Below are positions 12,801 through 15,800 of a stretch of DNA of 64,000 nucleotides, piece after piece. The notes under the pieces are model-generated. The model was not told the DNA's origin. It saw only the letters and a program-made list of their open reading frames with translations, and did not search any database. The stretch is taken from the NCBI GenBank assembly GCA_963457665.1, contig OY735228.1, positions 434,001 through 498,000 on the forward strand, in the 5' to 3' direction. How positions within the stretch are numbered: the first letter of the stretch is position 1; every line of letters starts with the position of its first letter. Both the position numbers and the translations under genes were made by a program. Origin of the DNA: Thysanoteuthis rhombus. Its lineage: Eukaryota > Mollusca > Cephalopoda > Oegopsida > Thysanoteuthidae.

Positions 12801-15800
12801 TTTACCTTGATTAGTGCAGTGAAATCATTCCAAAATTTTCCATATTGTTTGAAACTGCTCTATTCAAAGTCTTATAACTTGATATTTTTCTTGAGGGGGG
12901 GGGATGGATGATGTTCAATCTACACTTTGTTACATTAATTAGTACAGATTACCTCAAAACCCATACTAATCAAAATTGAACTATTCAAGATAATCCTTTA
13001 TATTGGATACTTTCGTTGATAGCTTTTTCATATTTCTGATTTTAGCAGTAATGGTTTGTGGATCATGAATTTTACTGTTATTACCATTGATATCACAAAT
13101 GACTTGATGTGTGTGTGTTTTTTGTAGATGAATTCCTTTGAGCAGTTGTGCATTAATTATACGAATGAAAAGCTGCAGCAGCTGTTCAACCACACCATGT
13201 TCATCCTGGAGCAAGAGGAGTATCAGAGGGAGGGCATAGAGTGGAAGTTCATCGACTTCGGACTCGATTTGCAACCAACCATTGACCTCATTGAAAAGGT
13301 AATGAACATTTTTTTTAAATTTTTTAAAAATATTTTTAATGTTTTTTGAGGAAGAGGAATCTTGATAAATATTTAACTCTGTGTGTTTGTTTATTTGTAG
13401 TAGAATGTGGATTCACTACACAAACTAGCTCGTGTTTCAGCCCTCTCTGGGCCTCATCAGGCAAACAATTATCTATGTTTTTGAATTCTAGTTTTGGGGA
13501 ATTTAGTGATAATGTTGTGAGTGTGGTAGTGAGTGGTAGGGGTTATTCATTTTGTCAAGGGGTGTGGACTGGATCTAGGGGTCATCTCTGAAAGGATGCT
13601 TGGTAGTTTTCTGGGGTGTTGTTCTTATCTTTACTTTGGTATTTTGATATTGGGTTTTATTGCCCCCTGGTGATATCCTCTGTGGCTCTAGTGGATAGTA
13701 TTATTCTTAATTTTTAATTTATAATTTGTTTGGGCATTTATATCAAATTATTAAATCACTTTTATCAACCCGTTTCTACTTCACTAATGAAGTGAACTGA
13801 AAAAGATGGTTGTTGAAAATCTTTTTCTATTTCTGATTTATCAGGGAAATGCTCTGAATCTTTGTTTATTTTCATTTCTTCTTCAGAATGTTTTCGTCCC
13901 CCTATTTAAATAGTGAGGGTAGATGTTTCAATGTGGTTTTTACTTGGAAAAATTGTTAAACTCGAAGAACTTCATAGACTTCGAAATATTTTATGTTCCA
14001 CAAATTTATTTATTTTTTTTTTTTTTTTGGTTGTGTAATTCTGAGTCATCACATTTTGAACCACTGTTTGGGATTCCAATGTGTGAAAATTCTAAAAATT
14101 ATTCCAATACACATTTAATTGCATTTAAATTTTTGAAAGATTTCTTAACTTGTTGCACTTGACATAAGTAAACTTGTAAATGAAGTTGAATCATTGAAAG
14201 TGCTGACTTCAATACTCTTTGTATCTCATGATAGTTGCTACATTCACATATGTATTTTTTTCACCAGATGTAATCACTATCTTCATCTCATACTCTTCCT
14301 GCTGTGTTACTAACATTCATACTTGGTGGGAAATATTTGACTTTTTTTTTCTATTCACCAGTTTGAATATTGAAGTAAATTCTCATTCAGTGAAGTAAGA
14401 TCTTTTCAACTCTTGACTTTCTTTCCTTCTTTTCAAGCCCATGGGTATTCTGGCCCTTCTAGATGAGGAATGTTGGTTTCCCAAGGCCACAGACAAAACC
14501 TATGTGGATAAACTGCTGGGACATCACGTCAATCATCCCAAATTTGAAAAACCTGATTTCCGTGCTGATGCTGATTTCAGCCTCATTCACTATGCAGGCA
14601 AAGTAAGTACATTTGATGAGAAATGGACTTTTTTTGAGTCAGAATGTTAGATTTATGAAAATTCATTTTGCTGATCTAGATTTCAATTGAAATTTGCAAA
14701 GCTGAAAACATCATATAGGAGTATTAATCTGAATAAAACCTCTTATTTCCATTACATAGACCAATTAACTTTTGATGGTATTGGAAATATTTTTCTCTGC
14801 AATTGTAATTTATTGTTGATAATAACTAGGAAGAAAAAACCTGTTGAAAATATAGATTATAGAACTTTGGTTTCTCAGATGGGTAATTTTAGTTCAGGAA
14901 TTTTAGAAATTGTCCCTTATCTTTATAATATAATTTAACCTCGGGACTAGATGTTCAGATTTTAATTTGTTCATTTTATGTAAATTTATAACAATTCATA
15001 CTTGAAACTCTTTGGAGCAATCACTTGTACCTTTGGAATATCAAGTCTTGGCTCATTTTCTCATTGTACTGCCATTTTCTTCGATCTCTGTCAAAACTGA
15101 TTCAATCTTCAATTTCTTTCTTTTTTTAGGTTGATTATTCTGCCCAAGCATGGCTGATGAAGAACATGGATCCCTTGAATGAAAATGTTGTAGCCCTACT
15201 GCAAAATTCATCTGACCCTTTCATCCAACTCATCTGGAAGGATGGTGAGTTCTTGCACAAATAATTCATTCAGCTTAATGTTTCCTCCTCAATGTAATTT
15301 TTTTTTATCAAATCACAAATGTTGAGAATCAGGATTTACTGTTGAAAGCATTTAGATGTAACAAAGTCCAACATGGAATGAAGCTAAGTTTATAATTAGT
15401 TTGATAATTATGGAAAAGTCACTTTATTATTGGCAATTGTGTGTGCTTCGGATTCTGAAAAAATAGGGTTGTATGGAGTTAACAAAATGATTAGCTTGAA
15501 TCTATTTTGAAGTGGAATTTTCAAAGATTTTAATACATTTGGCTGATGAAAATAAACTTCTGGAAAATTTTGTGGAAGAATCGAAGAACATAATTTTTGA
15601 TGTAGTTTTACTGTAAATCTTCAATGATTGAATTCTTTTCTTTTCTTCCCCACAGCTGAAATTGTTGGTCTTGGAGCAGCTGCTGCTGCTGAGACTGCGT
15701 TTGGTTCTCGCACCAGAAAGGGAATGTTCCGTACAGTGAGCCAACTCTACAAGGAACAACTGGCCAAACTGATGGCCACCCTCAGAAATACTAATCCCAA

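What the first reader, a model, noticed from the sequence alone, without database searches (positions are those of the whole stretch)
13411..13466. Hammerhead ribozyme motif antisense in a myosin intron
CUGAUGA, GAAA, a UA cleavage position and three pairable stems occur in the right order on the minus strand. Established: small type I hammerheads with short stem III are carried by Penelope-like elements and retrozymes in many animals. The 13390-13740 block is therefore probably such an insertion. The G-U pair next to the core and wobbles in stem I may reduce activity.
Basis: partly seen in the sequence, partly recalled or inferred. Interest (0 to 1): 0.75.

Follow-up and report, generated by a model that had tools for sequence, protein, structure and literature searches.

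The report
Decayed Penelope retroelement with hammerhead motif
The motif is a real hammerhead-ribozyme-like stretch inside an old, 5'-truncated copy of a very abundant Penelope-type retroelement that sits backwards in a myosin intron; the kind is known, and some details of how copies are joined raise the question whether the ribozyme cuts at all.

Summary
On the minus strand 13466-13411 has hammerhead type I geometry: CUGAUGA, GAAA, three pairable stems, cut expected after 13417. Rfam does not call it (13.0 bits, cut-off 34). A descriptor written afterwards finds it once in the window and twice in 1.08 Gb of simulated sequence.

Block 13737-13398 is a 5'-truncated copy of a dispersed repeat. 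A 35-place pattern of its relatives' ribozyme matches 1005 places in the host genome. Other copies show RT-like and GIY-YIG-like pieces upstream, an optional tail, AT-repeat targets and head-to-head arms, the anatomy of Penelope-like elements. Pfam does not name the RT or EN pieces.

This copy is antisense to a non-muscle-type myosin II gene, has four G-U wobbles and is probably inert.

Leads: position 11.1 is A in 29 of 29 nearest copies instead of the usual C. Head-to-head joints lie at the ribozyme's 5' edge at 179 places, against 11 near the cut; but only 2 of 8 joints not chosen for position lie there, and two position controls did not complete. Verdict: a new member of a known kind.

The parts
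13398..13737 (-). 5'-truncated insertion: pseudo-LTR of a Penelope-like element, short 3' end form; minus-strand 5' end at 13737, 3' end at 13398 (13392 in some alignments)
   Evidence: blastn of 29 relatives: 22 of 29 start at 13737, 21 of 29 end at 13398 or 13392; relatives continue upstream with shared sequence that this copy lacks
13411..13466 (-). hammerhead type I motif
   Evidence: geometry read from sequence; Rfam RF00163 13.0 bits at exactly this interval; family model R1 79.1 bits, this copy being in the training set
13461..13466 (-). stem I, 5' strand (GUUUGC; majority of relatives AUUCGC)
13454..13460 (-). catalytic core CUGAUGA (C3-A9)
13439..13453 (-). stem II GGCCC / GGGCU with loop AGAGA; 11.1 (13439) is U here, A in 29 of 29 nearest relatives
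13435..13438 (-). catalytic core GAAA (G12-A15.1)
13418..13435 (-). stem III: A-U plus CAC/GUG, 10-nt loop GAGCUAGUUU
13417..13417 (-). A17; cleavage expected on its 3' side
   Evidence: position inferred from hammerhead numbering; not tested
13411..13416 (-). stem I, 3' strand (GUGAAU; majority of relatives GCGAAU)
13128..13298 (+). host exon, myosin II heavy chain head, 57 codons
   Evidence: sequence, read by eye; phmmer best matches are non-muscle and smooth myosin II heavy chains (best 60 of 145 shown)
13299..14437 (+). host intron holding the insertion in antisense; the next exon starts at about 14438 ([11 protein letters not shown]...)
   Evidence: splice sites read by eye (GT at 13299)

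Best explanation
[quoted passage not shown] A 5'-truncated copy with the short 3' end was inserted, in antisense, into intron 13299-14437 of a myosin II gene. Such copies most likely arose when PLE RNA was reverse transcribed at a nick in AT-rich DNA, starting at one of two preferred sites 3' of the ribozyme. The myosin pre-mRNA contains only the complement, so the motif cannot cut it. A minus-strand transcript could fold as a hammerhead, but the wobble next to the core and the weak stem I make fast cleavage unlikely. Shown: the geometry, the copies, their limits, the linkage to RT-like and EN-like pieces, the head-to-head arms. Inferred: the naming of those pieces, the mechanism of insertion, the lack of activity, the lack of function for the host.
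For: Copies: 43 matches (this one included) from 40 scored of 3756 candidates, near-full-length ones 86-91% identical. A 35-place pattern matches 1005 places, backwards control 0. Core intact in 22 of 29 relatives; the 13 core columns are better conserved (0.973) than the pLTR mean (0.932; P about 0.008 for 13 random columns). RT-like piece, then GIY-YIG-like piece, then pLTR on one strand in 5 of 10 longer stretches (L032-L035, L038). Of 25 loci fetched by the RT piece, 15 carry the hammerhead on the same strand 421-1226 nt downstream (three of the 15 lie at places the DNA search had also found). Head-to-head arms with one short and one long 3' end in 11 of 13 distinct cases, matching the PLE rule of a tail at one of the inverted pLTRs (PMC3846280, passages). 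In 15 of 29 relatives the 40 nt after the short end are mostly (TA)n, matching AT-rich target choice (PMC11167929, section 3).
Against: Pfam names neither the RT nor the EN pieces, and neither does the PDB by sequence or profile; those two domains are identified by eye and recall. Rfam does not call the motif in this copy nor in eight relatives. No target-site duplication was made out for the window copy. No complete element was seen. Five of the 10 longer stretches lack one or more of the coding pieces in this order, as expected of truncated copies but no proof.
Confidence: 0.9

Rival explanations
1. It is a non-autonomous animal retrozyme, a short tandem repeat with a type I hammerhead that spreads as circular RNA.
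For: Type I geometry with a short stem III and a unit of about 340 bp, within the 150-450 bp of animal retrozymes (PMC7229834, passages).
Against: No tandem repeat is reported over the block. Relatives end 3' at two fixed sites. Flanks carry RT-like and EN-like pieces, and 15 of 25 RT-selected loci carry the motif downstream.
Confidence: 0.04
2. It is a chance resemblance in an intron.
For: Rfam score far below its cut-off; the descriptor was written after the motif was seen; the fold of this copy is no more stable than shuffles (z -0.85).
Against: 1005 genome matches of the relatives' form of the motif. Standard pairs fill 87.8% of cells in register against 43.7% at most when one side is slid by 1-3 columns.
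Confidence: 0.01
3. It is a host-exapted ribozyme acting on an antisense transcript of the myosin gene.
For: Core nucleotides are intact in this copy, and its mean distance to the others is at the low end (fourth lowest of 30).
Against: It looks like an ordinary copy: 19 of 339 differences from the majority, and stem I has lost pairs that the majority keeps. No transcript data were at hand.
Confidence: 0.02

Closest known systems
Hammerheads of Penelope-like elements (Cervera and De la Pena 2014, not held; described in passages of PMC6155905, PMC7761336 and in PMC11167929)
   Same: Type I topology in the pseudo-LTR, weak stem III, dispersed copies, RT-like and GIY-YIG-like pieces, tail, head-to-head inverted pLTRs, AT-rich targets.
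   Different: Stem III here has 3 pairs besides A-U and a 10-nt loop rather than being almost absent. Position 11.1 is A in the 29 nearest copies and U in this one rather than C. The tail runs about 140-155 nt past the short end in the copies measured rather than 30-40.
Poseidon element of Anolis carolinensis, PAc (PMC11167929, section 3 read)
   Same: Hammerhead beside the RT initiation sites, two RT start sites, preference for AT-rich targets, cutting and extension of both target strands.
   Different: In PAc the cut site is 26 bp inside the ORF; here the relation to an ORF start was not worked out. The short 3' end lies about 16-24 nt past the cut, the long one about 160-175.
Animal non-LTR retrozymes (PMC7229834, passages)
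   Same: Type I hammerhead in a repeat of a few hundred bp.
   Different: Retrozymes are tandem and non-coding; this family is dispersed and linked to RT-like and EN-like pieces.
The other hammerhead of this genome, L001
   Same: Type I core beside (TA)n.
   Different: Rfam calls it (35.6 bits); C at 11.1; not found by model R1 at E up to 1.

Membership tests
Penelope-like elements | RT followed by GIY-YIG endonuclease in one coding unit | tested here: inconclusive
   Pieces in the right order and strand in L032-L035 and L038, 5 of 10 stretches; Pfam and PDB searches name neither; motifs recognised by eye
Penelope-like elements | Pseudo-LTRs with head-to-head inverted partner | tested here: met
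   13 distinct head-to-head inserts with arms at most 25 nt apart in the loci held (five were chosen for adjacent cores); 179 junctions of one class in the genome
[quoted passage not shown]
   One short and one long end in 11 of 13; rule stated in PMC3846280 (passages)
Penelope-like elements | Hammerhead motif in the pLTR | tested here: met
Penelope-like elements | AT-rich target sites | tested here: met
   15 of 29 relatives have mostly (TA)n in the 40 nt after the short end, and several tails also end in (AT)n; the window copy's own 3' flank is not (TA)n
Penelope-like elements | RT groups with PLE/telomerase clade in a tree | not tested
   No long intact RT was used and no reference RTs were at hand
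Hammerhead ribozyme type I | Conserved core CUGANGA, GAAA, UH | tested here: met
   Window copy intact; 22 of 29 relatives intact
Hammerhead ribozyme type I | Three helices in type I order | tested here: met
   helix I 94.3%, II 76.6%, III 92.2% of cells paired; but for no measure does the observed value exceed all shuffles (56, 136, 33, 362 and 16 of 500 reach it)
Hammerhead ribozyme type I | G10.1-C11.1 pair closing stem II (recalled; C also in the RF00163 consensus line) | tested here: not met
   U in the window copy, A in 29 of 29 nearest copies; in 46 model matches (42 distinct) A 38, U 6, C 1 (L061), G 1
Hammerhead ribozyme type I | Rfam gathering score | tested here: not met
   13.0 bits against 34
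Hammerhead ribozyme type I | Self-cleavage in vitro | not testable with these tools
   Needs bench work
Animal non-LTR retrozyme | Tandem repeats of 150-450 bp | tested here: not met
   No array reported over the block in the window; relatives were not searched for arrays

The most novel reading that the evidence does not exclude
In this very abundant PLE family the hammerhead marks a preferred 5' end of the RNA that is reverse transcribed, and it is often not cut before reverse transcription. It then acts as a terminal or recognition structure rather than as a working cleaver, and the family has spread with a mispaired G10.1-A11.1 next to the core. Basis: 179 head-to-head junctions lie at the ribozyme's 5' edge, which an RNA cut at this ribozyme would have lost, against 11 near the cut site, in none of which do both arms start exactly at the cut. 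Against it: of 8 head-to-head joints not chosen for position only 2 lie at that edge, and position controls are missing.
Probability: 0.2. Interest if true: 0.55.

Novelty: new member of a known kind. Interest (0 to 1): 0.3.

Why it matters
For the window, it explains one intron block as an old retroelement copy, and it shows annotators a hammerhead family with at least a thousand matches of one form that Rfam's model did not call in the nine copies given to it. The role of PLE hammerheads is called a mystery in a review (PMC7761336, passages). The change at 11.1 and the joints at the ribozyme's 5' edge make one question testable: whether these ribozymes act by cutting at all during retrotransposition. 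This fits the Anolis result that catalytic mutants still insert in vitro (PMC11167929).

Tried and rejected
Rejected: CpG decay as the origin of all core wobbles. I first read the wobbles at 2.3, 1.2 and 11.1 as decayed CpG. Relatives support this for 2.3 (C in 20 of 29) and 1.2 (C in 22 of 29), but 11.1 is A in 29 of 29, and so is 2.6, the site of the fourth wobble.

Rejected: strong covariation. On A1 no measure exceeds all shuffles (56, 136, 33, 362, 16 of 500 reach the observed value), and the stem I changes on both sides lie at CpG sites. On the wider A4 (42 distinct rows, fitted to the structure) 40, 4, 24, 0 and 3 of 500 do, but relatedness can cause that.

Led nowhere: exact-pattern scans of prokaryote and viral collections (0); Pfam and PDB for the RT/EN pieces; a target-site duplication for this copy; Rfam on eight copies (106 matches below cut-off, no hammerhead). 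The host species was not identified.

Not answered: two position controls for the joints (seeds at about 13588 and 13445). The concentration of joints at the ribozyme edge therefore rests on one comparison. Its seeds differ in conservation: the edge seed is in 22 of 29 relatives, the loosened cut-site seed in 18 of 29, which explains only a small part of 179 against 11.

Against my reading: of the 8 distinct head-to-head joints found without choosing for position (L005, L006, L007, L008, L017, L025, L031, L038), only L017 and L038 lie at the ribozyme's 5' edge; the inner limits of the others fall at 13375, 13434, 13437, 13533, 13576 and far upstream. One (13375) lies past the cut.

Dropped or limited: I entered by hand only the rows for L042-L066. 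In one search L001, L042 and L045 were left out; two of the 15 head-to-head rows (L037, L039) repeat L005 and L017, leaving 13. The probe ended at about window-equivalent 13266, before the end of the tail, so long arms (13270-13280) are arms that reach to within 14 nt of the probe's end; the tail's own end was placed in 8 of 11 tail copies. One search's gap lengths come from the first 50 of 179 junctions listed, typed by hand and checked again against the coordinates.

Full report
What is there. The cut would fall after 13417. Free folding of the 56 nt of this copy gives stems II and III but not stem I, with an ordinary energy (z -0.85); of the five copies folded, only L025 shows all three stems in its best structure.

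Is it more than chance. Rfam Hammerhead_1 aligns to exactly this interval but with 13.0 bits, cut-off 34, E 1.5 even when only 95 nt are given; it is absent from the whole-window and 701-nt results. A descriptor written after the fact found this one site in the window and 2 in 1.08 Gb of order-2 Markov sequence. The better test is the host genome (2.73 Gb, 514 contigs). The block window:13390-13740 has 43 reported matches, itself included, from 40 scored of 3756 candidates; near-full-length ones are 86-91% identical, three partial ones 78-84%. The 35-place pattern CTGATGAGGCCYNRAGAGGGCAGAAACATGAGCTA, the form common in relatives, matches 542 + 463 places without mismatch and 0 for the backwards control.

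Limits of the insertion. Of 29 relatives, 22 start at 13737 and 21 end at 13398 or 13392. Relatives continue upstream with shared sequence (CTATCACCATTTTCTACCTCCAAAC or close to it before ATGCCC in most of those shown), which the window copy lacks, so it is 5'-truncated. It differs from the majority at 19 of 339 positions; its mean pairwise distance of 0.110 is fourth lowest in a range of 0.104-0.136. The block is CpG-poor (0.087 observed/expected, window 0.435). It lies in intron 13299-14437, antisense to the gene; the exon before it (13128-13298) matches non-muscle and smooth myosin II best.

What the element is. Upstream of the pLTR in other copies lie, on the same strand, pieces with RT-like features (KDHKPDF, FDIMDFYPSI, GLYRDDGLL, FLDITFNL...YRKEN...SNHP) and GIY-YIG-like features (SNIVYQAE...KYYIGISNTPFKLRLANHISSF...LCLNEK). 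RT, EN and pLTR pieces stand in this order in 5 of 10 longer stretches (L032-L035, L038); L036 and L041 have EN and pLTR only, and the other three lack this order. I recognise the pieces by eye; Pfam and PDB searches do not name them. A different EN fragment beside one copy (L043) reaches GIY-YIG weakly (19.0 bits, below the cut-off of 22.6). A search with the RT piece alone gave 150 scored matches from 5146 candidates. Of the 25 loci fetched, 15 carry the hammerhead on the same strand 421-1226 nt downstream, and 8 carry an inverted one upstream. Loci reach only about 1.5 kb to each side, so misses say little.

Ends. Relatives end 3' at one of two places: short (window-equivalent 13393-13401), or after a tail that runs about 140-155 nt further in the 8 tail copies where its end could be placed. 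In 15 of 29 the 40 nt after the short end are mostly (TA)n, and several tails also run into (AT)n. Of 13 distinct head-to-head inserts in the loci held (arms at most 25 nt apart), 11 pair a short with a long arm; L017 pairs short with 13357, and L025 is irregular. Five of the 13 (L067-L071) were chosen because two cores lay side by side. PLEs are described with inverted pLTRs, mostly head-to-head, palindromes at the inverted junction and a tail at one of them (PMC3846280, passages), and, for the Anolis element, with RT starting at two internal sites, both target strands cut and extended, AT-rich targets and a hammerhead (PMC11167929, section 3). This match is the main reason for filing the family under PLE.

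The ribozyme in the family. Every conserved core position is kept in 22 of 29 relatives; core columns are 0.973 conserved against 0.932 for the pLTR, while the whole 56-nt motif (0.940) is hardly better than the rest. Position 11.1 is A in 29 of 29; in 46 model matches it is A in 38, U in 6 (window, L043, L046 twice, L050, L053), C in L061 and G in one. The usual pair is G10.1-C11.1 (recalled, and C in the RF00163 consensus line). Pairing is far better in register than slid, but covariation is modest and clearer only on a wider alignment fitted to the structure. Whether any copy cuts is untested.

Joints at the ribozyme. Two motifs head to head within 14 nt (GGCCTCATCAGN{0,14}CTGATGAGGCC) occur at 179 places, control 0. 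In the first 50 listed, the gap is 6 nt in 17, as when one arm keeps the stem I 5' strand and the other starts at C3. In the five fetched, arms start at window-equivalents 13460-13466, and in three of them one arm lacks most or all of stem I's 5' strand; that both arms hold the core follows from how they were chosen. Near the cut site a looser pattern gives 11 places; in none do both arms start at the first base after the cut, and in two one arm may. The simplest reading of 179 against 11 is that many templates were uncut and began at the ribozyme's 5' edge. This agrees with the Anolis element, where catalytic mutants still insert in vitro (PMC11167929). Against it, of 8 joints found without choosing for position, only 2 lie at that edge, and the two control patterns did not complete. 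Amplification of already inverted copies could also inflate the count.

Verdict. Observation confirmed, interpretation supported: an old copy of a PLE pLTR with a degraded hammerhead, ordinary in kind. The family-level features (A at 11.1, joints at the 5' edge) are leads. I do not claim that they are absent from print: one search touched on them (two papers listed, neither read), and Cervera and De la Pena 2014 and Lunse 2017 were not held. A giant squid genome paper reports 235 hammerhead 1 matches (PMC6962438, passages); whether the host here is related was not examined.

Noticed in passing
57208-57321 (-); also 9109-9267 and 22669-22785: A 5S-rRNA-like match (42.2 bits) lies within a stretch repeated elsewhere in the window at 68-71% identity, which looks like a 5S-derived SINE rather than a 5S gene.
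   Followed up: partly
L001 1501-1544: A second hammerhead in the host genome (CTGAAGAG...CGAAACAGCTGTC), the only Rfam RF00163 match reported (35.6 bits; 73 of 299496 candidates scored), flanked by (TA)n. Its stem III half-site ACAGCUGU is a palindrome, as would suit a motif that works as a dimer.
   Followed up: no
45420-53276 (-): One stop-to-stop frame of 2618 codons with many C2H2 zinc fingers in clusters (read by eye), on the strand opposite to the myosin gene.
   Followed up: no
53796-53942: Tandem repeat of period 66, 2.2 copies.
   Followed up: no
L067-L071: Small palindromic inserts made of two head-to-head hammerheads, one with and one without the tail, with AT repeats beside them.
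   Followed up: partly
L043 1-447 of the minus-strand reading: A second, different GIY-YIG-like fragment of another element beside a copy of this family.
   Followed up: no
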